Shown piece by piece: positions 9,528 to 37,409 of a stretch of 54,163 nucleotides of DNA. The stretch's first letter is position 1. Each line of letters opens with the position of its first letter. A program made the translations under genes and the position numbers. The notes under the pieces were generated by a model. That model worked only from the letters and a program-made list of their open reading frames with translations, had not been told where the DNA came from and ran no database searches. The stretch is from a virus. The stretch spans positions 1 to 54,163 of the IMG/VR virus record IMGVR_UViG_3300047457_001050. One strand, written 5' to 3'.

Positions 9528-9803
9528 ATGGATTTCTTTAAATTAGTAGCAGATGTTGGATTTCCTATAGCGGCTGCACTAGCTGCGGGCTACTTTGTTT
9601 TCCTTACACTAAAATTTATTCTAGATGGCGTCACATCTAGTGTCAATGGTATGGCTGGAATAATTAAAGGCCTTGATGCTAGAGTATCTACAATGAACCA
9701 TGATGTTCAACGTATTGATGTAAAGATCAGTCATGCGCTAGGCCTACAGCCTGATTATAATCGAATCAGTCGTGCTGAGCAGAGTGATCAAAGGAGAGAC
9801 TGA
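9528..9803 (+). CDS. Small membrane protein, holin-like (paralogue 1)
   Basis: This 91-residue protein starts behind GGGAGCGG. One hydrophobic segment lies near residues 8-33 (FPIAAALAAGYFVFLTLKFIL), followed by an amphipathic stretch with heptad spacing and a charged tail. The pattern matches its neighbour at 9898 (FPI...GYF.F..K.......G...L..R...........I), so the two look like paralogues. Layout and size resemble BhlA/UviB-type holins. With the following lipoprotein this may be a lysis module, but no endolysin adjoins it. Confidence 0.55.
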   Translation: MDFFKLVADVGFPIAAALAAGYFVFLTLKFILDGVTSSVNGMAGIIKGLDARVSTMNHDVQRIDVKISHALGLQPDYNRISRAEQSDQRRD

Positions 9804-9910
9804 TGACTCCGTTGGAACTTATACATGCCGCAGGAATAGGCATAGATGAAAACAAACACCCCGAACTATTTCGATATCTTATGGAATTACTGTATCAATG
9901 GAAAATATAG
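9803..9910 (+). CDS. 35-residue peptide between the holin-like genes
   Basis: ATG at 9803 overlaps the TGA of the upstream gene (ATGA) and AAAGGAGAG lies at the right distance before it. The frame ends at TAG 9908-9910, overlapping the next start (9898). The peptide begins MTPLELIHAAGIGIDENKHP and has no membrane segment. The ribosome site and double overlap suggest it is translated in a coupled chain. Function unknown. Confidence 0.5.
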   Translation: MTPLELIHAAGIGIDENKHPELFRYLMELLYQWKI

Positions 9911-10308
9911 CAGAACTTATAAACAAATATGGCTTTCCTATTGTCAGCGCCGCAGGTATGGGTTACTTTATTTTCTTTGTATGGAAATGGGTGACTACGG
10001 TTGTTAAGCCTGTGATTGGTCAAGCAAATGGAACGCTGATTGCTCTAATTGATCGTATTCGCATGTTGGATAATGACCTAATAAGATTGAATCAAAAAGT
10101 AGAAACAGTATTACAACTACGTGGAAAAACCATTGATAAAGAACGTATCATCGCCGAACAAGAAATTAACGTTGATCCATTTAAGAAGAAAAAAGAAGAA
10201 GATGCTGCTGCCAAGAAAGCCGCCGAAGAAGCAGACAAGCCCATAGGTGGTCCTAAAGGTCGTAAAGCCACAGCGCAGGAAATTAAAGACGCAGCCGGCG
10301 ATGAATAA
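9898..10308 (+). CDS. Membrane protein with coiled coil, holin-like (paralogue 2)
   Basis: This 136-residue protein has one membrane helix (about residues 12-35, ending FFVWKWV), a heptad-patterned helix to about residue 80, and a highly charged Lys/Glu/Ala-rich tail with PFKKKKEEDAAAKKAAEEA. Its first 80 residues align by pattern with the 9528 product. It may be a second holin or antiholin, or a scaffold for the nearby lipoprotein. The stop overlaps the start of the lipoprotein gene. Confidence 0.55.
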   Translation: MENIAELINKYGFPIVSAAGMGYFIFFVWKWVTTVVKPVIGQANGTLIALIDRIRMLDNDLIRLNQKVETVLQLRGKTIDKERIIAEQEINVDPFKKKKEEDAAAKKAAEEADKPIGGPKGRKATAQEIKDAAGDE

Positions 10309-11577: not shown

Positions 11578-12585
11578 GTGGCAATAAGAAGAATTGTTAG
11601 TGTTCATTTTAATGAAGATTATGACCAACTCAAAGATGAAATGTTTTATGATTCTGATACTAACACAATCATTATACCAGATGAAGGTGGTCTTAGAAAA
11701 ATCATTTCAGCGCCGTTAGAAGAAACAGTATCAGAGGCTGTTCCTGGTCCTAAAGGTGATCAAGGAGAACCAGGTCCTGCTGGTAGAGATGGAGTTGATG
11801 GACCTCAGGGACCTCAGGGAGAAAAAGGAGAACCTGGTAGAGATGGTATAGATGGAGCACCTGGACCTAAAGGTGATCAAGGAGAACCAGGTCCTGCTGG
11901 TAGAGATGGAGCACCTGGTCCTAAAGGTGAAAAGGGAGACCAAGGTATACAGGGCGTACAAGGTCCTGCTGGTCGAGATGGACTACAAGGACCAAAGGGA
12001 GATTCAGGACAAGATGGAACTCCTGGTCGAGATGGTGTAGGTATCTCTACCGCAACTATTACCAATGGTTTCCTTATTATTACTAAAACAGATGGAACTA
12101 CTGTTAATGCTGGAAGTGTTGCTACCACATCTACAAGTTCAACAACACGATCAAGTGGTCCTGTAATGGTAGGAGGTGCTCCTAATCCATTCGCTCCCGT
12201 TATAGTCTCAGCACCCCCAGGTTACAAGGCGGCTAACATTGATGACGGTGTTGAATTATCATTGGACACATTGGCTGTTCAGTTAGCCCCTAGTGGTAGT
12301 CGTAGTTTACAATTTAGAACAACTAGCGGAACCTTATCAGTAAACATCACAGGACAGATCTACTGGGCCAAAGGTGACTATACAGGAAATTGGAGTGCTA
12401 ATTATTGGAATGGAAACACATTAACTACAGCATGGCTACAACCATTTACATGGAGTTTTCCATGGCAGGGCGACATGGCCATATACAATGTTCAAGATAT
12501 GACCAATCGTAGATTTTATAGAATCACACTAAGTATAGGTGGTGGTTACAAAAAGAATACAATTATTATAGAGAGAATGGTCTAG
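11578..12585 (+). CDS. Collagen-like fibre protein
   Basis: I choose GTG 11578, one base after the desaturase stop, with AGGGAGAT upstream. The 335-residue protein has a 56-residue N-terminal domain that starts AIRRIVSVHFNEDYD. It then has about 33 uninterrupted Gly-X-Y triplets (residues 57-155, rich in GPKGDQGEPGPAGRD blocks), a Ser/Thr-rich linker and a C-terminal beta-rich domain with many Trp and Tyr (WAKGDYTGNWSANYWNGN). The collagen part should form a trimeric stalk. Such proteins are common as phage tail or capsid fibres. The N-terminus would anchor and the C-terminus could bind a receptor or glycan. The repeat DNA is also a recombination-prone tract. Confidence 0.85.
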   Translation: MAIRRIVSVHFNEDYDQLKDEMFYDSDTNTIIIPDEGGLRKIISAPLEETVSEAVPGPKGDQGEPGPAGRDGVDGPQGPQGEKGEPGRDGIDGAPGPKGDQGEPGPAGRDGAPGPKGEKGDQGIQGVQGPAGRDGLQGPKGDSGQDGTPGRDGVGISTATITNGFLIITKTDGTTVNAGSVATTSTSSTTRSSGPVMVGGAPNPFAPVIVSAPPGYKAANIDDGVELSLDTLAVQLAPSGSRSLQFRTTSGTLSVNITGQIYWAKGDYTGNWSANYWNGNTLTTAWLQPFTWSFPWQGDMAIYNVQDMTNRRFYRITLSIGGGYKKNTIIIERMV

Positions 12586-13814
12586 TAACCATAGTTCCCA
12601 GGGTCGTTCTTAAATTTAATTTCATCTAATAACGACTCTCCTTCTATCTTCCAATTGGTAAAATCAGTCTTGTTAATTGTATTCATTAACAGTTGAAGTT
12701 TGTTCTGCGCTGAAGGTTCAAACAGTCCTCTCAATACCCACAACCATAAAAACTGTTGATGTTTTTCACCAATCTTATTATAGTAGTCGCATAATTTTAA
12801 CATAGCAGGCTGACTCTTTCTACGAGCCATAGTGACTAACTGTTCTACAGCATCTGTGATTTCATTCTGACTACTATGAGGATCTTCCATAATTGTAGAA
12901 CTGTATTCCATTTGTGCTTCTGGATTGGTCTTTGCGGCCTGTTTTAAAAATTGTAATCCAAGGCTACGATGAACACCCAACGGTCCTTGTAGCAGTTTAT
13001 ATATTGTCATAGCACGATCGCTGTCTATGCCCTTACAGTATTCACTTAATATAGCAACTACCACATGACGAAGTTCTACAGGCACTAATTCCTTGCCGGA
13101 CATGTCTAATAGTTCATTAAGGCTTGGTCCACATTTTTTTGTTATACGCCACATCAACACACGAGTAGCAGGACCAAATTGTCGATCACGTTTGAGATTT
13201 TGTGCGTCCTGTAGAGATTTACCTACAGCAGGTTTATCATTAACCACACTCTTTATCAGTTCTTCTTTACTGTATTTTACACTTTCTTTATGAACTACAT
13301 TGGGATTCTTTTGAGCACCTTTGATCTTAACAGCATAAATTTTAATAGGGTCTTTGATATTTTTAAATGACTGTGGACCACGCCATTCTATTTCTAAATT
13401 AGATATTTTACCACTTACAGCATCGAAAACTTGGCTGCTAAAGCAAACACCACCGAGGTCAGCAGTGCTTTCTATACGAGCAGCAATGTTTACAGTGTCG
13501 CCCATGAGATTATCACCGTAGGCAAAAACCTCTCCCAGATGTAGTCCAATCCGCCAGCGCATGTCTATGTTTAATGACTGTATTTTATTTTGAATTTCGT
13601 AGGCACATTTTACAGCATCTGTGGCACTGGGAAATTCAGCGAGAACAGCATCTCCTGCTGTGTTAAAAATACGACCATTATATGTTTTAATAGAAGGGTC
13701 AATAATAGACCTACATTGATCTAATTTGCGCAGTGTTCCTTCTTCATCTGCGCCCATCATACGACTATAACCAATTACATCACTACATAATATTGTGGTT
13801 AGTTTTTTGTCCAT
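12582..13814 (-). CDS. Class III nucleotide cyclase with helical C-terminal region
   Basis: The 410-residue soluble protein has an N-terminal class III cyclase domain (1-170). Metal-binding Asp12 (CSDVIGYS) and Asp55 (NTAGDAVLAEF) are present, and Asn109/Arg113 (VNIAARIES) match the transition-state residues. The base-recognition pair is not standard: the usual Lys, four residues before Asp55, is Asn51, and the usual Asp/Thr, seven before Asn109, is Asn102. The product might therefore not be cAMP. Residues 230-400 look like helical repeats. The stop overlaps that of the convergent collagen gene, and AAGGTG precedes the start. It lies behind a second cyclase on the same strand. Confidence 0.85.
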   Translation of the reverse strand: MDKKLTTILCSDVIGYSRMMGADEEGTLRKLDQCRSIIDPSIKTYNGRIFNTAGDAVLAEFPSATDAVKCAYEIQNKIQSLNIDMRWRIGLHLGEVFAYGDNLMGDTVNIAARIESTADLGGVCFSSQVFDAVSGKISNLEIEWRGPQSFKNIKDPIKIYAVKIKGAQKNPNVVHKESVKYSKEELIKSVVNDKPAVGKSLQDAQNLKRDRQFGPATRVLMWRITKKCGPSLNELLDMSGKELVPVELRHVVVAILSEYCKGIDSDRAMTIYKLLQGPLGVHRSLGLQFLKQAAKTNPEAQMEYSSTIMEDPHSSQNEITDAVEQLVTMARRKSQPAMLKLCDYYNKIGEKHQQFLWLWVLRGLFEPSAQNKLQLLMNTINKTDFTNWKIEGESLLDEIKFKNDPGNYGY

Positions 13815-16003: not shown

Positions 16004-16011
16004 TATTTATT
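16004..16011 (-). promoter_or_regulatory. T4-type late promoter (AATAAATA) before the CHASE2 cyclase
   Basis: The minus strand reads AATAAATA here, matching the T4 late consensus at seven of eight bases. Only seven bases separate it from the ATG at 15996, so transcription would start at or within the start codon. No ribosome site fits in between. Confidence 0.45.
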
Positions 16012-20970: not shown

Positions 20971-21004
20971 TTAAGTTTTCCTTTTTAGTTTAATTAGATT
21001 GAGA

Positions 21005-21091: not shown

Positions 21092-21113
21092 TGTTGATCT
21101 CCTTTGCGTTATT

Positions 21114-23398: not shown

Positions 23399-23686
23399 CT
23401 ATTTGTTTAATAAGGAATTTTTAAGATCAAGATACTCAGAAATAAAATTCATCTTGTCTGCTGTAGAAGGCATGTCCTGCCATTCTGCTTCTTTGACATT
23501 CTTAGTAACAAAGATTTCATAGTCGTGTCCGTTGCCCTTGTATAAGTTTACAGTTTGAAAACCTGCGGGGCTGTCTGCTGCTTGAATTAAGGCCTGTGCT
23601 AGTTCTTTTAATGCGGCACGTTCTCCCACTATGTAAGCGGGGTCTTTGACATCCTTACCTGTGTATATTTGTAGTCGTGATCTCAT
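23399..23686 (-). CDS. Uncharacterised 95-residue protein
   Basis: This soluble protein overlaps the end of the polymerase gene by four bases, so it is co-translated with it. It looks like an alpha/beta fold: RSRLQIYTGKDV, a helix (GERAALKELAQALIQAAD), FQTVNLYKGNGHDYEIFVTK and a helical end. I do not recognise a family. It may be a partner of the DnaE-like polymerase or unrelated. Confidence 0.6.
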   Translation of the reverse strand: MRSRLQIYTGKDVKDPAYIVGERAALKELAQALIQAADSPAGFQTVNLYKGNGHDYEIFVTKNVKEAEWQDMPSTADKMNFISEYLDLKNSLLNK

Positions 23687-25347
23687 ACTAATTCTTGTAG
23701 TTTGATTCTTTTATGTTTGTATACTGTAACATACTCTGTGTTATTTTTATACCCCAATTTGCCCGTTCCCCATATGATAGGATGATCGTGTAGGCTAACG
23801 GCATGAGGTAAGACCACATCTAGATAACGACCATTGCCTGTGCCCAGTGTGACAAATGTTATATACTCTTTGGGCTTTGATTTAAACACACGATAGTTTG
23901 CTACCAGACCACAGAACTCTACCTGCCCTGGCTTGCGAATTTCCTGGCACACAGGTATAAAACTCTTTGAACGCCAACGACCCATTTTCATTAGATCCTC
24001 AATCTCGCCACCTTGACCTATGGAAGGCACAGCACCTGCTAACTTTGCTTCTTGCCAATAGACCCAGCGAGCATATGATCCTTGACAGTGTTTTAGAGCA
24101 GCACGCCAGAACGCTTCTGGATTGTGTGCTTTCTGATAGGCCAGAGCCCAGATCAACCTTCCCAAGTTTATAGCATGAGCACGACACAGGCCAAAATGGC
24201 TAAGTTCTTTCAGTGCCATGAACACATCGTCCTTGCGTGGATGATCTCCTACTAGTTGTAGGAACTCGAACATCTTTTCTTCATTCTTCTTAGCAAAGGC
24301 ACGTCGCCACATGTCTGCGGTATAACTATCACAGCCCAGGATTTCTGATATAAGTTCTATAGCATCATCTTCAAACACTATGGTATCCTGAAAACCATCC
24401 TTTGACCAATCTTGAAAGAAACTAGCCTTACGACGACCTTGTGTGGCCACCGGACGAATTAGAGCAGTGGCCAAGGTGCAGTCACTCTTGCTCTTGGGAC
24501 GAATAGCACGAAACAGACGTTTCATAGCAGGGCTTTCACCCTGTGTTACACCCAGTATATCACCACGACATAGTAGTTCGCTGGTAGCCTCATCATGTTC
24601 GGGATAGTCGGACAATGAACGCTGTTCTATTTCCCATAGTTGACTCAATCCTCTGTTAGCAAGTATATCTATTTTAAAGTGTTCTAGGTCCTCAATTTCA
24701 TATTTGTCCAGTAGAATTTGATTCTCAGCATTGATTAGGCTTTTAGGCACTGAGCGATCGAATATTAAGATACCTCCACAGTGTTTAGAAATACAGCGTT
24801 TCTTACCTAGTAGTTTTTTAACTAACCTTTTAGCATCTTCGGCAAACTCGGGCACGACCTTATCAAGGTCAATATTACGAGGTAGTCTACCCTTAGCACC
24901 ATATCTCTTAGCGGCTTCACGTATGGCAGACTTTTCTTTATAGGTCACATAGTTTGACACACGAGCACTCTGTCCTGGCCATCTTTTGTATATCCTGTTC
25001 ATAACAGTTTCTTGTTGCCAATGAGGAAAGTCAAGATCTATGTCAGGTAAGTCATCACGTTTAGGATTCATAAAACGTGCTAGTGGTATTCGTTCCTTCA
25101 CAGGATCTACATCTGATATAGCCATTAGATAGCAGATCAGGCTTGAGCCTGCTGAACCTCTGGTTATGTGTGGAATGTCACGAGTTAGGTCCAGTATTTC
25201 CCTAACTCTGAGAAAGTGTTTGGCAAAACCTAGTTGTGCTATGAGTTCTAATTCTTCTGCTAGTCTTGTGTTATATTCTTCAGTATCGGGTATTTGCCTA
25301 GTAAATTTGGTGATGAGGTGTTCTAGTTCCCTGTATCTTGATTCCAT
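23683..25347 (-). CDS. Short PHP-less DnaE-like (family C) DNA polymerase
   Basis: The 554-residue protein covers only the palm/fingers core of a DNA polymerase III alpha subunit. The nucleotide-binding stretch TRGSAGSSLICYLMAISDVDP is followed by the catalytic PDIDLDF (Asp104, Asp106); the third catalytic Asp is Asp227 in KIDIL. The N-terminal PHP domain is absent, as is most of the region between palm and C-terminus. A helix-hairpin-helix-like region (GLCRAHAINLGRLIWALAYQKAHNPEAFW) and an OB-fold-like end are present. Typical DnaE is about 1,150 residues. All catalytic acids remain, so it may be an active, compact, perhaps error-prone polymerase, unlike the family B enzyme of T4. Confidence 0.85.
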   Translation of the reverse strand: MESRYRELEHLITKFTRQIPDTEEYNTRLAEELELIAQLGFAKHFLRVREILDLTRDIPHITRGSAGSSLICYLMAISDVDPVKERIPLARFMNPKRDDLPDIDLDFPHWQQETVMNRIYKRWPGQSARVSNYVTYKEKSAIREAAKRYGAKGRLPRNIDLDKVVPEFAEDAKRLVKKLLGKKRCISKHCGGILIFDRSVPKSLINAENQILLDKYEIEDLEHFKIDILANRGLSQLWEIEQRSLSDYPEHDEATSELLCRGDILGVTQGESPAMKRLFRAIRPKSKSDCTLATALIRPVATQGRRKASFFQDWSKDGFQDTIVFEDDAIELISEILGCDSYTADMWRRAFAKKNEEKMFEFLQLVGDHPRKDDVFMALKELSHFGLCRAHAINLGRLIWALAYQKAHNPEAFWRAALKHCQGSYARWVYWQEAKLAGAVPSIGQGGEIEDLMKMGRWRSKSFIPVCQEIRKPGQVEFCGLVANYRVFKSKPKEYITFVTLGTGNGRYLDVVLPHAVSLHDHPIIWGTGKLGYKNNTEYVTVYKHKRIKLQELV

Positions 25348-26439: not shown

Positions 26440-26673
26440 TTAATGTTTTGTAGAGAAGTTGGCCAATAAAAGGTCACGGATCATTTCTAGTTCTTCATCC
26501 GAAGATACTATTATTTTTTCATCTAAATCAGTATCACCTTCCCAAATGTGTTTAGGAAGTCTTAGAAACAAGTAGATATCTTTCCAGGTTGTTGTAACAC
26601 CTTGACTATAGCATAATTCTATCACACGAAAGATCTGTAGACAAATTTCTTTGTGTAATTGATTGACGTTCAT
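26440..26673 (-). CDS. Small helical protein ending the curli operon
   Basis: ATG 26673 overlaps the TGA of the curlin-repeat gene (ATGA). The 77-residue product has no signal peptide and looks helical and acidic (HIWEGDTDLDEKIIVSSDEELE). It is co-transcribed with the curli-like genes. It resembles no curli component I know. Function unknown. Confidence 0.55.
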   Translation of the reverse strand: MNVNQLHKEICLQIFRVIELCYSQGVTTTWKDIYLFLRLPKHIWEGDTDLDEKIIVSSDEELEMIRDLLLANFSTKH

Positions 26674-28517
26674 GGTGACCCCTGTGTTACTGTAACAGAG
26701 CAACCACTTAGGTTAGCGCAGGCCTGTGTTATGTTATATTGTTGATTTATTGATCCTTGCTGTGTAAGATTCAATGTGCTTGCTCCACCAGCATTGGTCA
26801 AACTAATTGTAGCCTTATGACTGCCATTACCTGTCTGTGTAGCAGTAACAGTATGTCCACTACCTGCCAATACTAAATCCATATATTGCCCACCTGCTGC
26901 GGCCTGATTAACATTTACATTATTACTATTGCCTGTGATCGTAGCGTAGAAAGAATGATAGGTATTTTGTCCAAATCCTTGATTTACTGTAATAGTATTT
27001 GTATTACCAGTAACCTCAGTCTTATTATAGTGTCCAGAATTGACGCCACCTGCGTTGGCCTGTTTGAGTGTTATGGTATTTGTATTTCCTGTAACTTTGA
27101 GGTCAATAAAATGCCCGCCGCTTTCAATGCCATCTTTGCTGACTGTGGGCCAAGTTCCATTCCAGCCCTGCTGTAGAGTTATAGTATTGGCAGAACCATT
27201 GACATCAAATTCAATTAGATTCTTTCCACTACCCAGTCCATCACCTTGACGTATTCTAAGAGTATTATAATCGCCTATTAATTGAGCATCACCAATACCA
27301 CCACGACCCTGTATATAATTTGTAGTTCCTTCCTGTATAACGTCAACTTCTGCGTAACTACCACTTTGAGTAATATATAATTTGTTGCCTTGTGCCAATG
27401 CGGCCACACGAGCACGATCGGAATTTTTTTGATTAAGTTGTGAGGCAGTCTCTGTGCTTGAATACCAACTTGACCCACCGCCTGCTTCTTGACCTATGCT
27501 TTCACCGCCCAAGACCTGATAGGTTCCGTCGCCTTGTGGATCCCAGGCTATTTCAAAACTGGTAGGGCCACCTCCACTGTTATCTGTATAAAATTGAACA
27601 TAGAGTATTTCACCAGGTTTGGCTGTATATGAACCATAAGAGTAGGAACAGCAATCACCGTTAGTCACCTGTGTGCCATTGATATATAGCCTGTGTTTAT
27701 CATCCCATCCTGTTCTAAACCATATGGTCTTGCTGACACCATTCATAGCACCAGGCCAACGAATATATCCTGTAACCCAGGCATAAAATCCAGGACCAGT
27801 TCCTCCCTGACTCCAACTAGCATTTGATTGACTCCAACTGCCACTATTACAGCAGTCATACCACTGTATAAACCATCCACGATTTGATGTGCCTCTGGTA
27901 TAGGGATATAGGCTTGAGCCACTGGTCTGTGCTACATTATTAGTGGGCAAGGCTGGTGGTGCCGGACTGGTGACCATGGCCTGTGTGAGTGCTTGATACT
28001 GTGCTGTAGTAGCAGTGCCGCCGTGTGTCCAAGTTGAACTGGTAGTTGAGGTTGATGCCTGTAGATTGATGTAGTATCCATACCACGTGGTGTTATCCAC
28101 AAACATATACTGACGACCTTCGTTAGCACCATTTTCAAAGGCGATAAATCTACCATAAGGTATCATTACAGTATTAAGAGTATTGTTACTATTCCACAGT
28201 TCTAATTGTATAGGATTGCCTGGCATACTGCCGTTATTATAACTAAAACGCACAGTCATACCAGATGTAAAACTAACAAAGCCTGTGCCAGGTTTATACA
28301 ATTGGCTTGAGATTAGACCACTGACGGTGCAGGTTCCGCTTGATTGGGTGCAGGCTCCTACATTCCATTGACTGTCGAATACCTTGCCCACTGGCAGTTG
28401 TAGGTCAGTGACATCAGCACGAGCCGGAGTAGGCGTGAGTGCTACAAAAATTAAACCCAGGCACAATATAAGAACAAATATGCCAAATCCTGTTACCCAT
28501 TTATATCCGTATTTCAT
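26670..28517 (-). CDS. Large curlin-repeat adhesin with PA14-like domain
   Basis: The 615-residue secreted protein has an N-terminal hydrophobic signal (about 10-35, ending PTPARA). Next come a Trp/Gly/Ser-rich region with paired Cys (WYDCCNSGSW, NGDCCSYSY) and a PA14-like carbohydrate-binding stretch (WFRTGWDDKHRLYINGTQV). From about residue 370 there are curlin-type repeats: YITQSGSYAEVDVIQEG, VTGNTNTITLKQ, VTGNTNTITVNQ, ITGNSNNVNVNQ, LNLTQQGSINQQYNITQ. The regular Gln/Asn ladders are those of amyloid curlins. It probably is exported through the CsgG-like pore and displayed on the host cell. It is much larger than CsgA/CsgB, and the lectin-like part suggests adhesion. Confidence 0.8.
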   Translation of the reverse strand: MKYGYKWVTGFGIFVLILCLGLIFVALTPTPARADVTDLQLPVGKVFDSQWNVGACTQSSGTCTVSGLISSQLYKPGTGFVSFTSGMTVRFSYNNGSMPGNPIQLELWNSNNTLNTVMIPYGRFIAFENGANEGRQYMFVDNTTWYGYYINLQASTSTTSSTWTHGGTATTAQYQALTQAMVTSPAPPALPTNNVAQTSGSSLYPYTRGTSNRGWFIQWYDCCNSGSWSQSNASWSQGGTGPGFYAWVTGYIRWPGAMNGVSKTIWFRTGWDDKHRLYINGTQVTNGDCCSYSYGSYTAKPGEILYVQFYTDNSGGGPTSFEIAWDPQGDGTYQVLGGESIGQEAGGGSSWYSSTETASQLNQKNSDRARVAALAQGNKLYITQSGSYAEVDVIQEGTTNYIQGRGGIGDAQLIGDYNTLRIRQGDGLGSGKNLIEFDVNGSANTITLQQGWNGTWPTVSKDGIESGGHFIDLKVTGNTNTITLKQANAGGVNSGHYNKTEVTGNTNTITVNQGFGQNTYHSFYATITGNSNNVNVNQAAAGGQYMDLVLAGSGHTVTATQTGNGSHKATISLTNAGGASTLNLTQQGSINQQYNITQACANLSGCSVTVTQGSP

Positions 28518-29668
28518 CTGTATGTTTGATTGATAACAATCTGTCCTTGTGCTCGGCCACTGCTAAAGTTGTTGCTAATACTCATCATATCTTGTGTAAC
28601 GCTGACCTGAACCTGAGTATTCATTTGTAGTGAAACTTGTGCTACATTGCGGCCGTTCTGACTAACACTTTCTATGGCCCAACCTACCTGTTTAGTTTCT
28701 GATTTGTCTTTCCATATTTTACGAAGATATTCTGGATCTTCTGATTTTGTTTCTTCCTTGGCAGTTGATGCAGGAATTTCTTCTTTGACTTCAACTTGTG
28801 CTACTGTGGTTTTGGTGTCTGAAGCAGGGGCTTCTTGAGTCTTTTTAGCGTCTGCCGCCTGGTTACTTGCGACTTGTTCTGAGTTATCACCACCATCTTT
28901 GCTCTCTTCTTTGCTCTCTTTCTTTGAGTCATCTTTCTTCACTCCTGGAACACCTGCTTGTGCTGCTGCTGCTCTTGCTGCTGCTACTAGCGGAGCCCCA
29001 CTCATTGTGGGCGGCGGGCTTACTAATAGATTAGTGCCTACTGGCATGGCAAACAAATTCACTGTTAATGGCGGTGTAGGCGGTGCGCCTGCTGTTTCTA
29101 CCATGGTAGCCTGAAAGGGTCTATTCATACTGACCAAATTAGGTCCACTTTCTACATCAATGGCGCCACTGCCGCATATAGCACCTTTTACATTGGGTCC
29201 TGTATTATCCTCACAACTGGGCATTAAGATCACTGTAGATGCGCCAGTTTCATTTACTGCCATGACAAAGTCAGTGCCACGCACAGCGATTGCCGCAGTA
29301 GGTGTATTGATCTTAACAGCATTGGGATTAGCACCGGCTATGGCACCACTGACATAGCGCACAGCACCACTGGTGGCCTTTAGACCAAGTTTTCCTCCCT
29401 GAGCATTTTTAGGATCATAAACAAAATCATCAATAACCAAACTACTGTGTTCCGTGACTGATACTGTAGTATTGTCCTTAAAAGTAATTTTAACCTTGCC
29501 ATTCTTTGTTTCAATCTTATCATTAGTTTGAATCACCGTTCCCTTGGCTATTGTCACAGAATCTTTACCACGTTTTATTGTGCCACTGCCTGTGACCTCT
29601 GTAACTGAACCTATGTCTGCCCAGGCCGTGGTGGCGCAAAATAATAAACTTAAACAGAAATAACGCAC
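28514..29668 (-). CDS. Secreted FecR-domain protein
   Basis: The 384-residue protein has a Sec signal (CLSLLFCATTAWA) followed by a FecR domain: GSVTEVTGSGTIKRGKDSV, AKGTVIQTNDKIETKNGKVKI in two segments, DNTTVSVTEHSSLVIDDF and AAIAVRGTDFVMAV, all typical. The second half is low-complexity, Lys/Glu/Ala-rich (KKDDSKKESKEESKDGG), with a C-terminal beta region (VSLQMNTQVQVSV). There is no anti-sigma membrane helix, so it is the stand-alone periplasmic type found next to curli-like or CHASE2-cyclase genes. It overlaps the adhesin gene by four bases. It may chaperone or anchor the fibre. Confidence 0.85.
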   Translation of the reverse strand: MRYFCLSLLFCATTAWADIGSVTEVTGSGTIKRGKDSVTIAKGTVIQTNDKIETKNGKVKITFKDNTTVSVTEHSSLVIDDFVYDPKNAQGGKLGLKATSGAVRYVSGAIAGANPNAVKINTPTAAIAVRGTDFVMAVNETGASTVILMPSCEDNTGPNVKGAICGSGAIDVESGPNLVSMNRPFQATMVETAGAPPTPPLTVNLFAMPVGTNLLVSPPPTMSGAPLVAAARAAAAQAGVPGVKKDDSKKESKEESKDGGDNSEQVASNQAADAKKTQEAPASDTKTTVAQVEVKEEIPASTAKEETKSEDPEYLRKIWKDKSETKQVGWAIESVSQNGRNVAQVSLQMNTQVQVSVTQDMMSISNNFSSGRAQGQIVINQTYR

Positions 29669-29677
29669 GGCAACTCC

Positions 29678-30544
29678 TTATGGTGTTGTTCGTTGAATTA
29701 TATTCCAAACTCCACTGCTGCCCACTGTAGTGACCTTGACCACATTATCCTGTGTGCCTGATTGAGCAATATAGAATCTGTTGCTGGCTCCATTTACATC
29801 CAACCATATGCTGCTACCATAAGCACTGTTGCCTGTCTGGCTCAGGTTGAACACGTTGAAGTTACCTGCCACTGTGATAGTTTGGTTATGATTGTTGCCC
29901 ACTGCGTCAATATTGAACTCATTGCTATTACCACTGGTCACAGTGATTTGACTGTTTAGGTCATCACCTGTGCCACGAAACTGTATGGCATTGCTGTTAC
30001 CTGTAAATTTCCAATTTAGAACAGCATCCTTACAGCCTGTTAGAGCAGCACCTGCTGAACTTGATCCACTACCGCATAACACATCAGCAAAGTTACTGTT
30101 GCCCAACTGCTGAATAGTAACATCTACTCCCTGTGCTGCCACATCTGGGCTTATTGCCTTCATAGCAATAGTATTGTTATTGCCTACCTGATTTAATATA
30201 ATGTTATGATCGTCACCACGCAGATAGATAGCACTGTTTACTGTATATTGACGAACACCACCTGGGTTCAAACGATCTACAATACCTGTTATAATTTTGC
30301 TATAGGTAGAATCACTGCCAGCAGTGTTACCACTGCCTGTTTGTGTGATGCTGACGTTTGGACGTTCACCATCTTGGTCAATGAACACACGATTGGTAGC
30401 ACTCTGTGTCAGTGCTGTGGCAGTGCCTGCCATTACTCCAACTGTGGGATCAACGGGAGTTGTTGGGCTTGGTGCTGTTACTGTAGTCTGTGCTAGCACC
30501 GGAAATGCTGAGATCATCAACAGTGTTATTAGTGTTTTTTTCAT
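29678..30544 (-). CDS. Curlin-repeat fibre subunit (CsgA/CsgB-like)
   Basis: I start at ATG 30544, with GGAG upstream; an in-frame start at 30562 is possible. The 288-residue product has a Sec signal (KKTLITLLMISAFPVLAQ) and curlin repeats of the Q-x-G-x-x-N type: QTGSGNTA, NQVGNNNTIA, QQLGNSNFADV, DAVGNNHNQTITVAGN, SQTGNSAYG, QSGTQDNVV. Curlins polymerise into extracellular amyloid after passing CsgG. It is about twice the length of E. coli CsgA. It lies directly downstream of the CsgG-like gene. Confidence 0.82.
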   Translation of the reverse strand: MKKTLITLLMISAFPVLAQTTVTAPSPTTPVDPTVGVMAGTATALTQSATNRVFIDQDGERPNVSITQTGSGNTAGSDSTYSKIITGIVDRLNPGGVRQYTVNSAIYLRGDDHNIILNQVGNNNTIAMKAISPDVAAQGVDVTIQQLGNSNFADVLCGSGSSSAGAALTGCKDAVLNWKFTGNSNAIQFRGTGDDLNSQITVTSGNSNEFNIDAVGNNHNQTITVAGNFNVFNLSQTGNSAYGSSIWLDVNGASNRFYIAQSGTQDNVVKVTTVGSSGVWNIIQRTTP

Positions 30545-30561
30545 GTTCGCTCCGTCCTTCA

Positions 30562-31473
30562 TTAGTTTGTTTTAACTGGTTGTCCACTGGAGTCGACCAG
30601 TCCTTGATTGGGGGCTGATTCAGTAGACTGGGGGGTAGTTTTGGGCTTCGGTGTCTGAACCACGTCATGTTTGGCTTGCTCCTTGTATTTCCACAGTCCT
30701 TGGCGCTCACCTTGATTTATCAGTTCTATGACACCTGCTTCAATTGCTGAACGCATGGCATAATTGCCTGGCTCATTGAATGTTTGCCCTGTATCCAGTT
30801 CAAACGCACGAGTAGCGGTATTAAAGAATTTCAGTGCTGTGAGGCCTTCTGATGTGCTTAATAGGTTCTTTTCTATGGTCACACTGGTTAAGACTTCGCC
30901 AGTTTGAACACTGACTAATCTTAGACTGATAACCACTAGGTCTTGTGTGTATTGAGTATATGGTCCTATGCCCAACCAACGAGCACCTGTGCCCCCTGTT
31001 AGAGTATTTGAATTATAATCAATAATACCACCTTCTATGATCACACCTGCTAGAGTTAATGGTGGCAGCATTTTGGCCTTTTCACCATCGTAGATTTCTC
31101 TAGTCTGTTTGATCATTTGTCTTTCTTTAAGTAAGTTATCTAGGCCCACACGCTCGACCACTGTGAACCATTGACGATTGCCAACTTCACTTAGAGTTTT
31201 AATTAGATAATTTTCAGCGCCTTGAGTAACTGCTGATGAAAATAAACTCAATGTGTTACTGGGCTTACGTTGGCCTGTTAGATCTCTAAAGTTGTATACA
31301 GCCACAGTGATTGGAGGACCTGCTGGGGCTGGCACTTGATTTAACTCTTTCAGTATGTTTTGACTTACTTTGGGTTCGCTCGCTGCCTGCGCATCAACGA
31401 TTGGTCGTATAGCATTACAACCTCCTAATGCTATACTTGCTGCGATTATGCTTAATTTCAGTATGTTCTTCAT
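30562..31473 (-). CDS. csgG: CsgG-like curli secretion lipoprotein
   Basis: The 303-residue protein starts at ATG 31473, just after the CsgF stop. It has a lipoprotein signal with lipobox ALGGC (Cys19). The CsgG domain is well conserved: ITVAVYNFRDLTGQRKPS, TQGAENYLIKTLSEVG, WFTVVERVGLDNLLKERQMI, ARWLGIGPYTQYTQDLVVI and GEVLTSVTIEKNLLS. CsgG forms a nonameric outer-membrane pore that secretes curlin subunits. The C-terminal tail (residues 265-303) is Pro/Thr-rich and extra. CsgG alone is known in some marine phages; here it is next to CsgF and two curlin-like substrates. Confidence 0.92.
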   Translation of the reverse strand: MKNILKLSIIAASIALGGCNAIRPIVDAQAASEPKVSQNILKELNQVPAPAGPPITVAVYNFRDLTGQRKPSNTLSLFSSAVTQGAENYLIKTLSEVGNRQWFTVVERVGLDNLLKERQMIKQTREIYDGEKAKMLPPLTLAGVIIEGGIIDYNSNTLTGGTGARWLGIGPYTQYTQDLVVISLRLVSVQTGEVLTSVTIEKNLLSTSEGLTALKFFNTATRAFELDTGQTFNEPGNYAMRSAIEAGVIELINQGERQGLWKYKEQAKHDVVQTPKPKTTPQSTESAPNQGLVDSSGQPVKTN

Positions 31474-31474
31474 A

Positions 31475-31948
31475 TTAGAATCCAAAACTTGCTATTGGCA
31501 CACGCACAGTGGTCACGGTTCCTGCTTTATCTACCACTGTCAATGTTACATCTTTGTCTGTTTTTACCCAGGTAATGGTATTGCCATCTAATGAAAATAC
31601 ACCTGAGGTAGGATTGATACATCCTGCTATAGGCAAGCCGTCTGCACCATTACATTTATTTTGGAATAGATTGGTGCTGAGTTGACTGGCTAATTGAGCA
31701 TATACTTGACTGGTAAACAGGCTCATAAAGCGAGCCAATGGTGTATTCTGCGATTCTGCCAGCAATCTGGCCTCTTCAGATTTTTTCTGACTTTCTATGT
31801 TATCTTTACGTGCTTTCTCTATACTGTCAATAGTAAGAACATGGCTGCTCCAGTTTTGTCCGTTAAAACTAGGACTCTTAAACTGTTGGACTAGTTCAGC
31901 ATGAACGAGTGTTGGAATGAGAAGCAATACCAACGCAATTTTCTTCAT
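31475..31948 (-). CDS. csgF: CsgF-like curli assembly factor
   Basis: The 157-residue protein has a Sec signal (KKIALVLLLIPTLVHA) and then LVQQFKSPSFNG, which matches the mature CsgF N-terminus that plugs into the CsgG pore (F-R-N-P-x-F-G-G type). The middle (FTSQVYAQLASQLSTNLF) and the end (DVTLTVVDKAGTVTTVRVPIASFGF) also follow CsgF. CsgF couples secretion to nucleation at the cell surface. It is the first gene of the five-gene curli-like set, with AAGGAGCG before ATG and a GATAAATA element upstream. Confidence 0.85.
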   Translation of the reverse strand: MKKIALVLLLIPTLVHAELVQQFKSPSFNGQNWSSHVLTIDSIEKARKDNIESQKKSEEARLLAESQNTPLARFMSLFTSQVYAQLASQLSTNLFQNKCNGADGLPIAGCINPTSGVFSLDGNTITWVKTDKDVTLTVVDKAGTVTTVRVPIASFGF

Positions 31949-31992
31949 AGTCGCTCCTTAGTTATATATTATTTATCGGAGCGTTTAAGAAT

Positions 31993-33457: not shown

Positions 33458-33465
33458 TATTTATA
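33458..33465 (-). promoter_or_regulatory. T4 late promoter TATAAATA
   Basis: A perfect match to the T4 late promoter on the minus strand, seven bases before the ATG at 33450. Confidence 0.6.
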
Positions 33466-34129
33466 CAGTCTCAGGAAACAAAACTTCTTCTACAAATTTA
33501 TTGATAGTAGGTTCAGGAACCCCCATAGCGACCATGCTTTTTACCACTTGTGGATTTTGCTTTTGATAATGACAATAACGATTTTGTGCCATATGGAAAT
33601 CAGCACCACATGTTTGTGTAAGGCCTACATTTTCTAAATAGTATTTCAGTGAAACTTTGGCAAGATGGCAAAGCAAATCAATTTCGTTTTCTTCTCTTAT
33701 GTTGCCTGCTGCTACCATATTTGGACTGAATATTTGTTTCGCCCATTCAGGAAGATTTCTAGGTTTCGACCATGACAATGTTTCACTTGTTTCTTTAAAC
33801 CATTTTATCATCTCGTGGTTAGGATCACCTGCACTACTGAAATCGTGAAACGCACCTGTAATCTTATTCTTACCGCAGACTGCATCAAACCCCCAGATTG
33901 GGCTAGGATCATTGTAGTGAGGGAAAACAGTAGAATGAAGTATATAAATGCCGTGCGACTCTCTATTGTCTACTATTTCTATATGTGCTCTGCGAAATCT
34001 CAAACTTGAATAAAGAGCATTATACCAGGAATATTCATGTTCCTTATCAGTATACTTATCTCCAACCTGGTTAAATGCCTGTTCTATTTCTTGAGCTAGA
34101 TTAGCTATTTTGTTCCAAGTCTCTGTCAT
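33461..34129 (-). CDS. Ferredoxin-dependent bilin reductase (PcyA/PebS/PcyX-like)
   Basis: The 222-residue protein fits the FDBR family. The catalytic pair is recognisable: His65 and Asp82 (SPIWGFDAV) keep the 17-residue spacing of His88 and Asp105 in PcyA. SSLRFRRAHIEI, GIYILHSTVFPHYN and the Cys/His-rich end (ADFHMAQNRYCHYQ) also fit. The gene overlaps the haem oxygenase gene by 29 bases, as in phage ho-pebS and ho-pcyX pairs. It would reduce biliverdin to a coloured bilin with host ferredoxin. With no photosynthesis genes nearby, it resembles the PcyX type of phages thought to infect heterotrophs. The exact product is not predictable. Confidence 0.85.
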   Translation of the reverse strand: MTETWNKIANLAQEIEQAFNQVGDKYTDKEHEYSWYNALYSSLRFRRAHIEIVDNRESHGIYILHSTVFPHYNDPSPIWGFDAVCGKNKITGAFHDFSSAGDPNHEMIKWFKETSETLSWSKPRNLPEWAKQIFSPNMVAAGNIREENEIDLLCHLAKVSLKYYLENVGLTQTCGADFHMAQNRYCHYQKQNPQVVKSMVAMGVPEPTINKFVEEVLFPETV

Positions 34130-34658
34130 AAACTTTTAAGATTTTAATAGCGTAATCAAACGCTAAATTTGCTTCGTCTGCCATTTCATCTTTTAATAAT
34201 GATCTAATTTCAGACTTAAGAACGTCTGGATTTTCAAACTCTAAACCCGAGTTAGGTCCTGGCATAAGATTTTTAATAGCTTGTCCTCCATATAGGTCTC
34301 CTAAATGCCAAGTGTAGATATGAGCAATAAGCCTGTCTTTATTTTCAGGTGTCCCTAAATTTATATTAATATAGTCTACATATTCCCCTACTACTTCATT
34401 CATCATATCTTTAGGTTTATTACTACCTATACGTTTTCTATAATCCATCCTTATACGTTCATGGCAAAGAAAATCTGTATTATCTAAAAAAAGACCAAGC
34501 CTAAATGCCTGTGCCTCTAATGTATTATAAACAATCATTTTCTGGTAAAGAAAACTTGCATAAATTGCGGGGTCTAAAGTTCCCGCAAATATAGCCTTCA
34601 TGAATAAGGTATTTTCGGCTTCAGTGTGCTTGTCTGCTGTTAGTTCTTTTAATCCCAT
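34101..34658 (-). CDS. ho1: Haem oxygenase
   Basis: The 185-residue protein is a canonical biliverdin-forming haem oxygenase. The proximal His is His11 (TADKHTEAE), and the distal helix carries the GDLYGGQ motif (conserved Gly kink). The family positions FLYQKMIVYNTLEAQ and AHIYTWHLGD are also present. It opens haem to biliverdin, CO and iron. It should supply the bilin reductase encoded directly downstream. It follows clpS by one base, so clpS, ho1 and the reductase form one transcript. Confidence 0.93.
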   Translation of the reverse strand: MGLKELTADKHTEAENTLFMKAIFAGTLDPAIYASFLYQKMIVYNTLEAQAFRLGLFLDNTDFLCHERIRMDYRKRIGSNKPKDMMNEVVGEYVDYININLGTPENKDRLIAHIYTWHLGDLYGGQAIKNLMPGPNSGLEFENPDVLKSEIRSLLKDEMADEANLAFDYAIKILKVYDRDLEQNS

Positions 34659-34659: not shown

Positions 34660-34965
34660 TTATTCCGCTTCTAGTTTTATTACTAATGGATATCCACTTG
34701 CTCGAGATACACTAGTCGATTCAATAAGCTTTTGTTCAGCAATTTCGTAAGTATAGATTCCTGCCACACCACTTCCTTCATTGTGTATTTTTAAAGTTAT
34801 TTCTGTGGCTACATTTTGAGGATGTCTAAAGATAGACATCAATAGGCTTATTACGAATTCAACCGGCGTTACATCATCATTTAGAAAAATGATTTTGTAT
34901 TTTTTCGGTAGCTTTACCTTGTCGTTGGTTTTCGTTGACTTTTCAACAACTACATCAGTGGTCAT
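34660..34965 (-). CDS. clpS: ClpS adaptor of ClpAP
   Basis: This 101-residue protein has the ClpS core: KYKIIFLNDDVTPVEFVISLLMSIF (in which the Asn-Asp-Asp contacts N-degrons), ATEITLKIHNEGSGVAGIYTYEIAE (the His of the N-end residue pocket) and the final VIKLEAE. The flexible N-terminus (VEKSTKTNDKVKLPK) that controls ClpA is also present. ClpS feeds N-end-rule substrates to ClpAP. A phage copy could redirect host proteolysis. A perfect TATAAATA lies five bases before the ATG. Confidence 0.93.
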   Translation of the reverse strand: MTTDVVVEKSTKTNDKVKLPKKYKIIFLNDDVTPVEFVISLLMSIFRHPQNVATEITLKIHNEGSGVAGIYTYEIAEQKLIESTSVSRASGYPLVIKLEAE

Positions 34966-34970
34966 AATTA

Positions 34971-34978
34971 TATTTATA
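34971..34978 (-). promoter_or_regulatory. T4 late promoter TATAAATA before clpS
   Basis: Perfect late-promoter match on the minus strand, five bases from the ATG at 34965, so the clpS message would be leaderless or nearly so. Confidence 0.6.
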
Positions 34979-34981
34979 GTT

Positions 34982-35001
34982 AAAGGGGGAGGTCCCCCTT
35001 T
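34982..35001. terminator. Hairpin after hsp20
   Basis: AAAGGGGG (34982-34989), loop AGGT, CCCCCTTT (34994-35001). It lies a few bases after the hsp20 stop. The T-run is long on the plus strand (T7) and only three on the minus strand, so for hsp20 it is a weak terminator or an mRNA-protecting hairpin. Confidence 0.6.
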
Positions 35002-35007
35002 TTTTAA

Positions 35008-35442
35008 CTATTCACCTTTAATGTTTACAGTTCTTGGTTTAAGTGTATCAGGAACAATGCGCTCTAAATAGATGGTCAATACACCATTTTTAATAGAAGC
35101 ATCACCTACTTCAATGTGTTCAGCTAGTGGCCATACACGAGTAAAATCTCTGGATGCCAGGCCTTTATGCAGATAAGATTCGCCCGGCCAGTCCATAGCC
35201 TCACGCTGACCTTTAACAATTAATTGATCGTTATCTACTTCTACTGTAATTTCCTTCTTCTCAAATCCTGTGACTGCTACTTCTAATTGATAAGTATTGT
35301 CACCTGTTTTTACAATATTATATGGAGGATAGTTGTTGTTTATTTGATTTTGAAAACGACGCTCAAAGTCATTAAACAATGTATCAAATCCTAAAAGGGC
35401 TCTATTAAGAGCATTAGTATCAAATCTAACAATTTGTGTCAT
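35008..35442 (-). CDS. hsp20: Hsp20 small heat-shock protein (IbpA-type)
   Basis: The 144-residue protein has an alpha-crystallin domain: YPPYNIVKTGDNTYQLEVAV in its first strands, then TVEVDNDQLIVKGQRE, YLHKGLASRDFTRVWPLAEH and IKNGVLTIYLER. It ends with a V-N-I tail motif for oligomer contacts. It resembles bacterial IbpA and the Hsp20 common in T4-like cyanophages. It holds unfolding proteins for DnaK, which is encoded just upstream on the same strand. Confidence 0.95.
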   Translation of the reverse strand: MTQIVRFDTNALNRALLGFDTLFNDFERRFQNQINNNYPPYNIVKTGDNTYQLEVAVTGFEKKEITVEVDNDQLIVKGQREAMDWPGESYLHKGLASRDFTRVWPLAEHIEVGDASIKNGVLTIYLERIVPDTLKPRTVNIKGE

Positions 35443-35507
35443 TTTATTTCTCCTTTAAAAAGTAAGATTTTTAGGGGCCCGAGTTAGGTACCCCTTGTTT
35501 ACCAAAA

Positions 35508-37409
35508 TTAGTTTTTAACTTCAGTAAATTCTGCATCAACAACAGTGTCATCCTTTTTGGCTTCTGATTTAGTTTCAGTTTCTTTCTTGGACTTTTCTTT
35601 TTCGTGCTTAAGATTAATAGCAGGCATAGCCGCAGTAACCAAATTCATAGTTTGTTCTTTGATTTTATCTGCATCATCCTGTGTCATTGCTTCTTCAAGT
35701 TTAGTAATTGCCTCTTTGATTTTATCACTATCTTCTTGTTTGAGTTCATCCTTAACTTCTTCAAGATCTTTTCGAACATTATGAATTTGTGATTCTGCAC
35801 CGTTCCTAGCATCAATCAAAGAACGTTGTTTTTTATCAGATTCAGCATTTTCCTCTGCTTCTTTAATCATTCGTTTTATTTCAGCATCAGAAAGTCCACT
35901 ACTAGATTTAATGGTAATATTACTCTCTTTATTTGTTTTCTTATCTTTAGCACTAACCTTGAGAATACCATTAGCATCAAGATCGAACGTGACTTCAATT
36001 TGAGGCATTCCTCGTGGTTGAGGATCGATTCCTGTAAGATTAAACTCTCCTAACAGCTTATTATAAGCAACTAATTCTCTTTCACCTTGGTATACCTTAA
36101 TAGTAACAGCAGGTTGATTATCTTCAGCTGTGCTAAAAGTTTCACTGGCCTTAGTAGGAATAGTTGTATTCTTTTGAATAACTTTAGCCATTACCCCTCC
36201 TTGTGTCTCAATTCCGAGACTTAACGGAGTGACATCTAATAGCAACACATCTTTTCTGTCACCTGCTAACACTGCGCCTTGAATAGCTGCACCAACCGCT
36301 ACTGCTTCGTCCGGATTAACATCACGTCGTGGTGCTTTGCCGAATAACTGCTCTACTGCTTGCTGAACCTTAGGCATACGTGTCATACCGCCTACAAGGA
36401 TCACCTCATCAATATCTGCTGCGGTTACACCTGCATCTTTCATTGCGGTGCGGCATGGTTCTATACTTCTTTTAATAAGCTCTTCTACTAGACTTTCTAA
36501 TTTTGCTCTAGTAATATTAATGTTTAAATGCTTTGGACCGGTCGCATCAGCAGTTACATAGGGAAGATTAACAGTAGTTTGACTGCTGTTACTCAACTCA
36601 ATCTTAGCTTTTTCAGCGGCTTCCTTTAAACGCTGAAGTGCCAAAACATCCTTAGTAAGATCTACACCTTGTTCTTTTTTGAACTCAGATACTAGATAGT
36701 CCATAATTCGTTGATCAAAATCCTCACCGCCTAAAAATGTATCACCGTTAGTGCTAAGAACTTCAATTTGTTTATCTCCATCAATATTAGCAATTTCAAT
36801 AATACTAACATCAAATGTTCCACCGCCTAGGTCGTATACTGCTACCTTACGATCTTTTTTATCTGCCTTATCTACTCCATATGCTAGAGCAGCCGCAGTA
36901 GGTTCGTTGATAATACGAAGAACTTCAAGTCCTGCGATACGACCTGCATCTTTGGTAGCCTGTCTCTGGCTATCATTAAAATAAGCTGGAACTGTTATAA
37001 CTGCCTGCGTAACTTCATGCCCGAGATAATCTTCTGCGGTCTTTTTCATTTTACGCAAAACTTCAGCTGAAATCTGCGGGGGAGCTAATTTTTCGTTATT
37101 TGCTTCGATCCAAGCATCACCATTATCAGCCTCCACAATTTTATAAGGCATAAGATCAATATCTTTTTGAACTGCTTCTTCTTTAAACTTACGACCAATC
37201 AGGCGTTTAGCAGCATAGATTGTGTTTTTTGGGTTAGTAACTGCTTGGCGTTTTGCTGATGCTCCGACAAGGATTTCTTCGCCGTAGGCAATGATACTAG
37301 GCGTAGTGCGAGCACCTTCTGAATTTTCAATTACTTTGGGATTTCCGTTTTCGATGACTGCAACGCAGCTATTGGTAGTACCGAGATCGATACCGATGAC
37401 TTTACTCAT
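35508..37409 (-). CDS. dnaK: DnaK (Hsp70) chaperone
   Basis: The 633-residue protein is a full-length Hsp70. The ATPase domain has [26 protein letters not shown] and [12 protein letters not shown]; the linker is [13 protein letters not shown]; the substrate domain and helical lid end in the disordered tail [14 protein letters not shown], typical of bacterial DnaK. No DnaJ or GrpE gene is visible, so it should use host co-chaperones. A complete DnaK in a phage is rare. With Hsp20 and ClpS it makes a proteostasis cluster. AAGGAGAAC precedes the ATG; an AGATAAATA element is about 70 bases upstream. Confidence 0.97.

What the first reader, a model, noticed from the sequence alone, without database searches (positions are those of the whole stretch)
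26670..31948. Curli-like secretion system with its own substrates in a phage
CsgF, CsgG, a curlin-repeat protein, a FecR protein and a large curlin-repeat adhesin are encoded in order in a compact operon. CsgG-like genes are known in marine phages, but a CsgF plus two putative amyloid substrates makes an almost complete export and nucleation system. It lacks CsgE and CsgD. It might coat infected cells with amyloid to aggregate hosts, block superinfection or trap new virions.
Basis: partly seen in the sequence, partly recalled or inferred. Interest (0 to 1): 0.88.

Follow-up and report, generated by a model that had tools for sequence, protein, structure and literature searches.

The report
Late phage curli operon with sugar-binding adhesin
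This phage carries a near-complete set of genes for making and exporting curli-type protein fibres, a module already reported in other aquatic phages, and the sequence adds that it looks switched on late in infection and ends in a fibre protein with an interchangeable, probably sugar-binding head.

Summary
The five genes are real and lie exactly at 31948-26670 (minus strand): CsgF, CsgG, a curlin-repeat protein (CurA), a FecR-domain protein and a 615-aa curlin-repeat protein (CurB). All are under purifying selection. The module is not new. Wittmers et al. 2022 (PMC9599517) described CsgF-CsgG-CsgA/B-FecR-CsgA/B-adenylate cyclase in pelagiphages, and Melnitz and HTVC008M carry it. I found the five-gene order in 65 of 67 viral loci not cut by a contig end.

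Four points go beyond those papers. (1) A T4-type late-promoter core stands just upstream of csgF in 37 of 62 distinct phages (7.6 expected), which argues against an early superinfection block. (2) CurB's C-terminus is a curlin solenoid, but its N-terminus is swapped between phages as PA14-, GLEYA- or F5/8-type sugar-binding domains; the window's copy is PA14-like with the DD signature. (3) The 'FecR' is a secreted protein without the anti-sigma part, so probably an anchor or periplasmic partner rather than an iron regulator. (4) FecR and the CHASE2 cyclase were beside none of 74 bacterial curli clusters, so the combination looks phage-specific. Best reading: late-made, sugar-targeted adhesive fibres on the infected cell. 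Fibre formation and function are untested.

The parts
31475..31948 (-). csgF (157 aa): signal peptide, then the CsgG-binding-type N-terminal segment ELVQQFKSPSFNGQNWSSHVLT
   Evidence: Pfam CsgF 3.1e-9; F23, P26 and F28 invariant in 24 phages; aligns with E. coli FQFRNPNFGGN in 6l7a (weak, whole-profile E 0.11)
30562..31485 (-). csgG (307 aa): outer-membrane lipoprotein pore, lipobox LGGC
   Evidence: Pfam 1.2e-48; PDB 6lqh E 6e-48; invariant Cys23 and TGQRKPS..FSSAVTQ pore region
29678..30562 (-). curA (294 aa): first curlin-repeat protein, signal peptide
   Evidence: Curlin_rpt 4.8e-5; repeat score z=6.7
28514..29668 (-). FecR-domain protein (384 aa): signal peptide, FecR domain ~20-190, disordered linker ~206-309, C-terminal beta domain ~315-381
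   Evidence: Pfam FecR 1.1e-10; AF2 model; fold matches PupR 6ovk Z 15 and adhesin anchoring domain 5ix9 Z 10.9
26670..28517 (-). curB (615 aa): variable N-terminal domains plus C-terminal curlin solenoid
   Evidence: family A1; AF2 model
27483..27878 (-). PA14-like domain of CurB (~residues 214-345)
   Evidence: Foldseek to MpAFP PA14 5j6y/6x7z, probability 1.00, 22% identity, but E only 0.04; Z 6-8 to other beta-sandwich domains
27675..27704 (-). DDKHRLYING: PA14-type DD Ca/sugar signature of CurB (residues 272-281)
   Evidence: shuffle probability 1.5e-4; similar motif in L002, L003, L004, L006, L020; DcisD role from PMC8092209
26673..27455 (-). Curlin solenoid of CurB (residues 355-615)
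   Evidence: repeat score z=6.3, spacing mostly 23-29 aa; beta-solenoid model
31970..31976 (-). ATAAATA, T4-type late-promoter core, 28 nt upstream of csgF
   Evidence: NATAAATA/TATAAATA late promoter per PMC2984593
13942..15996 (-). CHASE2-adenylate cyclase (684 aa), module member displaced ~10.7 kb from curB
   Evidence: CHASE2 1e-37, Guanylate_cyc 1.4e-21; metal-binding Asp motifs FTDVRG and IGDAQMAF present
16004..16010 (-). ATAAATA late-promoter core, 14 nt upstream of the cyclase
12582..13814 (-). Second nucleotide cyclase (410 aa)
   Evidence: Guanylate_cyc 1.9e-7
9528..9803 (+). Small single-TM protein 1 of the module (phrog_18771)
   Evidence: partner co-occurrence
9898..10308 (+). 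Small single-TM protein 2 (phrog_18771; weak holin match 0.0011); probably what was called 'HK' in earlier work
   Evidence: present in 13 of 13 curli phage records; only Melnitz and HTVC008M among 50,697 phage records

Best explanation
A phage-encoded curli-type (type VIII) export and fibre module. Late in infection a T4-type late promoter drives csgF-csgG-curA-fecR-curB. CsgG (lipoprotein) forms the outer-membrane pore with the CsgF N-terminus in its barrel. CurA is exported through it and polymerises. CurB, a curlin solenoid carrying a swappable sugar-binding head (PA14-like here), joins the fibre and gives it a target: glycans on neighbouring host cells, on particles or on the cell's own envelope. 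The secreted FecR-domain protein, whose N-terminus resembles an adhesin anchoring domain, acts in the periplasm or at the membrane as anchor, plug or sensor partner of the CHASE2-cyclase. The net effect is adhesive fibres on the infected cell around lysis, which keep new hosts close to the burst ('sibling capture', proposed earlier by others). Shown by sequence or model: the gene set, export signals, purifying selection, late-promoter motif, modular head and the conserved CsgF motif. Inferred: export, amyloid formation, FecR role, sugar binding and benefit to the phage.
For: Family matches. Five-gene order in 65 of 67 uncut viral loci. Purifying selection. Late-promoter core upstream of csgF in 37/62 distinct csgF versus 7.6 by shuffling (maximum 18 in 500 rounds), 0/59 upstream of csgG; in the window 12 of 26 minus-strand sites lie 5-60 nt before a start, p=8e-9. 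CurB heads: Pfam F5/8 type C in 9/50, PA14 in 5/50, GLEYA in 3/50; L003 and L004 are 99% identical in CsgG but 24% in the CurB head; DD signature and PA14 fold match. CsgF motif conserved. FecR architecture and folds.
Against: No fibre, export or sugar binding has been shown. CsgE, which gates secretion in E. coli, is missing. Folded, Cys-containing CurB heads may not pass a CsgG pore. Melnitz cultures, which carry the same module, showed no visible clumping (PMC9004378). Many marine podophage-type CurB are short (260-268 aa), leaving little room for a head domain. The PA14 assignment of the window copy rests on fold similarity and a short motif; Pfam does not call it. The late motif is a consensus match, not a mapped start site.
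Confidence: 0.5

Rival explanations
1. Superinfection exclusion: the fibres coat the infected cell and block adsorption of other phages.
For: Proposed by Wittmers et al.; the proteins should be surface-exposed; a variable head could mask a phage-specific receptor (inference).
Against: Late-promoter placement is late for exclusion, which in T4 is early (general knowledge); fibres are porous coats.
Confidence: 0.15
2. Pore without fibres: CsgG(F) is a late lysis or envelope-permeability device (pinholin- or secretin-like), as proposed for Melnitz; the two small holin-like membrane proteins and the cyclase fit a lysis-timing cassette.
For: Buchholz et al. 2022; small TM pair with weak holin similarity, present in 13/13 records; late promoter.
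Against: Two curlin-repeat genes, CsgF and FecR are conserved and under purifying selection, which a bare pore would not need; that paper stated csgA/csgB are absent, yet the Melnitz GenBank record annotates two curlin-repeat proteins in the operon.
Confidence: 0.15
3. Uptake pore: ungated CsgG lets large nutrients or iron complexes in, regulated by FecR.
For: Suggested by Zaragoza-Solas 2020 and Wittmers 2022; without CsgE the E. coli pore is ungated (PMC4551309); P-acquisition genes nearby.
Against: Does not explain curlin genes or swappable heads; FecR here has no anti-sigma part or TM helix; late timing is poor for nutrition.
Confidence: 0.08
4. Virion fibres: CurA and CurB are structural or receptor-binding parts of the particle.
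For: Late promoter; swappable sugar-binding heads resemble tail-fibre evolution.
Against: N-terminal export signals and a dedicated outer-membrane exporter in the same operon; no PHROG tail or virion match.
Confidence: 0.07

Closest known systems
Pelagiphage T8SS module of Wittmers et al. 2022 (PMC9599517); Melnitz (MZ577097) and HTVC008M (KC465899) loci
   Same: Same genes in the same order: two small proteins, CsgF, CsgG, curlin, FecR, curlin, CHASE2-cyclase
   Different: In the window the cyclase and the small TM pair lie 10-20 kb away behind inserted genes (PstS, PhoX-like, DNA polymerase, glycosyltransferase); CurB is 615 aa with a PA14-like head; late-promoter core before csgF. CsgG identity 44-49%
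Bacterial curli systems (E. coli csgBAC/csgDEFG; Alpha- and Gammaproteobacteria, Bacteroidetes, Nitrospirota)
   Same: CsgF, CsgG and curlin-repeat substrates
   Different: No CsgE; FecR and CHASE2-cyclase found in none of 71 + 3 bacterial csg clusters examined; CsgG constriction loop lacks the E. coli Tyr51/Asn55 equivalents but keeps Phe56 (alignment; numbering from general knowledge)
RTX adhesin MpAFP/MpIBP of Marinomonas primoryensis
   Same: PA14 sugar-binding domain fold and DD signature; N-terminal anchoring-domain fold
   Different: There one giant type I-secreted protein; here split over a FecR-domain protein and a curlin-repeat protein beside a CsgG pore
FecR/PupR anti-sigma regulators
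   Same: Periplasmic FecR domain fold, Z 15 to PupR
   Different: No N-terminal anti-sigma domain, no TM helix; has a signal peptide and a separate C-terminal beta domain

Membership tests
Type VIII secretion (curli) system | CsgG outer-membrane lipoprotein pore | tested here: met
Type VIII secretion (curli) system | CsgF with N-terminal CsgG-binding segment | tested here: met
   Pfam CsgF over cut-off; motif invariant in 24 phages; residue-level match to the E. coli segment weak
Type VIII secretion (curli) system | Curlin-repeat substrates encoded with the exporter | tested here: met
Type VIII secretion (curli) system | CsgE specificity factor (present in many, not all, systems) | tested here: not met
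   0 of 13 records, E. coli control positive. Not treated as obligatory: PMC7029224 reports that curli form without CsgE at lower yield
Type VIII secretion (curli) system | CsgD regulator | not tested
   Not searched; reported as typically lacking outside Gammaproteobacteria
Type VIII secretion (curli) system | Secreted protein forms amyloid fibres | not testable with these tools
   needs expression, ThT/Congo red, EM
Phage T8SS module (Wittmers 2022) | Gene order CsgF-CsgG-curlin-FecR-curlin | tested here: met
Phage T8SS module (Wittmers 2022) | Adenylate cyclase in the cluster | tested here: inconclusive
   Homologue present but ~10.7 kb away; within 100 nt of curB in 31 of 53 relatives
Phage T8SS module (Wittmers 2022) | Histidine kinase before csgF | tested here: not met
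   The genes before csgF in Melnitz/HTVC008M and their window homologues are ~90-136 aa TM proteins; no kinase domain in Pfam for the window copies. That these are the published 'HK' is an inference
FecR sigma regulators | N-terminal anti-sigma domain and TM helix before the FecR domain | tested here: not met
   Only FecR (and a weak hit over the signal peptide) in Pfam; the only helix before the domain is residues 2-10
PA14 sugar-binding domain (CurB head) | PA14 fold with DD motif | tested here: inconclusive
   Fold match and DD motif but no Pfam call for the window copy; some relatives are called
T4-type late transcription unit | TATAAATA/NATAAATA core at promoter distance | tested here: met
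T4-type late transcription unit | gp33/gp55 late factors in the same phage | tested here: inconclusive
   Melnitz gp33 matches HTVC008M only, not the window or its partial relatives; gp55 not searched

The most novel reading that the evidence does not exclude
A phage-specific secreted adhesion device: late-made amyloid fibres with recombination-swapped lectin-type heads (PA14, GLEYA, F5/8) that bind the next host's or a particle's sugars, anchored by a FecR-type protein coupled to a CHASE2 cyclase. The phage would build an extracellular capture net with glycan-specific targeting.
Probability: 0.35. Interest if true: 0.85.

Novelty: new variant of a known kind. Interest (0 to 1): 0.5.

Why it matters
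If the fibres form, lytic phages reshape the surface of the infected cell for adhesion just before lysis, which would change how encounter rates and aggregate formation are viewed in dilute waters. The swappable head and late timing turn three competing published ideas (capture, exclusion, lysis pore) into distinguishable predictions: which glycans bind, when the operon is made, and whether csgG removal changes aggregation or lysis. The FecR-regulator and 'histidine kinase' labels now in the literature would need correction.

Tried and rejected
FecR C-terminus as a curlin repeat: significant only in some relatives (L037, L039, L041, L046, L047), not in the window (p 0.47); profile comparison with CurB only 36% probability, so not claimed. 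Seven genome-scan loci with phage-type CsgF (FecR in five, cyclase in three, several cut by contig ends) look like phage contigs in MAGs. FecR homologues in bacteria are often parts of large proteins and sometimes sit near a cyclase (7 of 59 loci, ~1.5 kb flanks), so the FecR-cyclase pair may predate its link to csg. CsgF-CsgG complex modelling was not possible (single chains only). Host assignment was not resolved (RNR best hit, 61% to Xanthomonas phage X1 is not decisive). gp33 search in relatives negative. Literature searches found no later experimental work on phage curli, within open-access papers only.
Full report
WHAT IS THERE. The window is a virus record of 54163 bases, GC ~38%, with T4-like traits. 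On the minus strand, 31948 to 26670, five overlapping or abutting genes encode CsgF (157 aa), CsgG (307 aa), a curlin-repeat protein (CurA, 294 aa), a FecR-domain protein (384 aa) and a long curlin-repeat protein (CurB, 615 aa). The weakest assignment, CurB, has no Pfam hit by itself. Its 50-member family has Curlin_rpt hits in 34 members, matches the solved curlin-repeat protein 8c50 at 3.5e-24, and the window's C-terminal 261 residues score 6.3 s.d. above shuffles for curlin repeats with mostly 23-29 residue spacing, while the N-terminal half scores like shuffles. dN/dS against three close relatives is 0.05-0.17 for all five genes.

THE MODULE IS KNOWN AND CONSERVED. A scan of viral contigs gave 78 CsgG loci. 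The order CsgF-CsgG-CurA-FecR-CurB is complete in 65 of 67 loci not cut by a contig end; only L076 and L078 lack CurB. Melnitz and HTVC008M have the same genes followed by a CHASE2-cyclase. Wittmers et al. 2022 described this cluster in podo- and myo-type pelagiphages; Zaragoza-Solas 2020 and Buchholz 2022 described parts of it. Buchholz et al. wrote that csgA/csgB are missing in Melnitz, but the GenBank record annotates two curlin-repeat proteins in the operon. Among 50,697 phage records the same six records (Melnitz x4, HTVC008M x2) hold CsgG, FecR, the CHASE2-cyclase and the small TM proteins; CsgG additionally hits a 1.5-kb 'Salmonella phage' record and the cyclase domain alone hits two Acinetobacter records.

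WHAT IS DIFFERENT HERE. In the window and its closest relatives the cyclase (13942-15996 here) is separated from the operon, ~10.7 kb downstream of curB in the window, and two small TM proteins (9528-10308), which directly precede csgF in Melnitz and HTVC008M, lie beyond it on the other strand. In 31 of 53 relatives the cyclase starts within 100 nt of curB. The inserted block includes PstS, a PhoX-like protein, a DNA polymerase III-type gene and a glycosyltransferase. Homologues of the small TM proteins occur in 13 of 13 curli-bearing records, have no kinase domain and have a weak holin match. They are probably the 'histidine kinase' of the 2022 paper, which lists HK among the short or diverged proteins; this identification is my inference.

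TIMING. The T4-type late-promoter core is TATAAATA, NATAAATA in cyanophages (PMC2984593). ATAAATA stands 28 nt upstream of csgF (31976) and 14 nt upstream of the cyclase (16010). In the window 12 of 26 minus-strand TAAATA sites fall 5-60 nt upstream of a gene start, against 5.9% of positions (p=8e-9). Over distinct csgF genes, 37 of 62 have the core within 80 nt upstream, mostly at -24 to -40; shuffles give 7.6 on average and at most 18; upstream of csgG it is 0 of 59. It is absent from many marine podophage-type loci, as expected if those use another polymerase system, and from the 80 nt before Melnitz csgF. The operon is therefore probably late in the T4-like carriers. gp33 was not found in the partial relatives with the one query tried, and gp55 was not searched.

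THE ADHESIN HEAD. CurB lengths run from 207 to 764 aa, and the difference lies mainly in the N-terminus. Pfam finds F5/8 type C in 9, PA14 in 5 and GLEYA in 3 of 50 members. Over 78 pairs of relatives, mean identity falls from 0.73 (CsgG) and 0.57 (FecR) to 0.43 (CurB C-terminus) and 0.21 (CurB N-terminus). L003 and L004 share 99% of CsgG but 24% of the head, which indicates domain replacement. The window head's ~214-345 stretch matches the PA14 sugar-binding domain of the Marinomonas adhesin with Foldseek probability 1.00 but E only 0.04, and keeps DDKHRLYING at 272, the consecutive Asp pair that coordinates Ca2+ and sugar in PA14 lectins (PMC8092209). Marine podophage-type CurB are about 260 aa with little room for a head.

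FecR IS PROBABLY NOT A REGULATOR. It has a signal peptide, one FecR domain, a disordered charged linker and a C-terminal beta domain. The anti-sigma domain and TM helix of FecR/PupR regulators are missing. The fold matches the PupR periplasmic domain (Z 15) and, for residues 16-111, the cell-surface anchoring domain of the Marinomonas adhesin (5ix9, Z 10.9, 25% identity). Many bacterial FecR-domain matches lie in long reading frames. I infer an anchoring, plugging or sensing role at the envelope with the CHASE2 domain. A shared fold does not prove function.

EXPORT. CsgG keeps the lipobox and the pore region. CsgF keeps F-x-x-P-x-F next to its signal cleavage site, invariant in 24 phages, which aligns with E. 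coli FRNPNF, the part seen inside the CsgG barrel in the solved complexes (general knowledge). That is indirect support for docking; the complex was not modelled. CsgE is absent in all 13 records searched; without it the E. coli pore is ungated. How folded, Cys-containing heads would pass the pore is unexplained.

BACTERIAL COMPARISON. Of 78 best CsgG loci from bacterial genomes, 71 are ordinary csg clusters without FecR or CHASE2-cyclase in the flank; seven carry phage-type CsgF and look like phage contigs in MAGs. Three alphaproteobacterial clusters also lack them.

VERDICT. Real, conserved and selected; known in kind. New here are the late timing, the swappable sugar-binding head, the corrected reading of FecR and 'HK', and the split layout of the window's clade.

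Noticed in passing
window 33461-34658: Ferredoxin-dependent bilin reductase (Pfam 4.3e-17) next to a heme oxygenase (1.6e-15): a bilin-making pair just upstream of the curli operon, with a similar pair by eye beside csgF in L086.
   Followed up: partly
window 19960-23321: Phosphate-binding PstS homologue (phrog_5385, 1e-66) and a PhoX-like protein by eye, inserted between the curli operon and its cyclase.
   Followed up: no
window 34660-37409: ClpS-like, Hsp20-like and full-length DnaK-like (phrog_22485, 1.8e-279) genes in a row; Hsp20- and ClpS-like genes also precede csgF in L086.
   Followed up: no
window 1457-9463: Surface-sugar gene cluster: aminotransferase, two nucleotide-sugar epimerases, ThDP-type enzyme, methyltransferase.
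   Followed up: no
window 11539-12585: Collagen-like (GXY-repeat) tail-fibre-type protein.
   Followed up: no
window 23399-25347: DNA polymerase III alpha-like gene (phrog_405, 2.8e-59) of only 554 aa followed by a 95-aa frame; possibly split or partial.
   Followed up: no
L022, L026, L075 and similar: CsgG variants of ~385-414 aa with a Pro-rich linker and an SH3-like C-terminal extension (by eye).
   Followed up: no
L086-L090, L116, L130: Phage-type curli operon contigs filed in MAGs of Pirellulales, Rhodobacteraceae, Pelagibacter, Flavobacteriaceae, Saprospirales and Maricaulis: likely misbinned phages.
   Followed up: partly
L085 (OR851715.1): A 1.5-kb record named Salmonella phage S.Kent 1-2-1 carries an E. 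coli-like csgG and looks like bacterial contamination.
   Followed up: no
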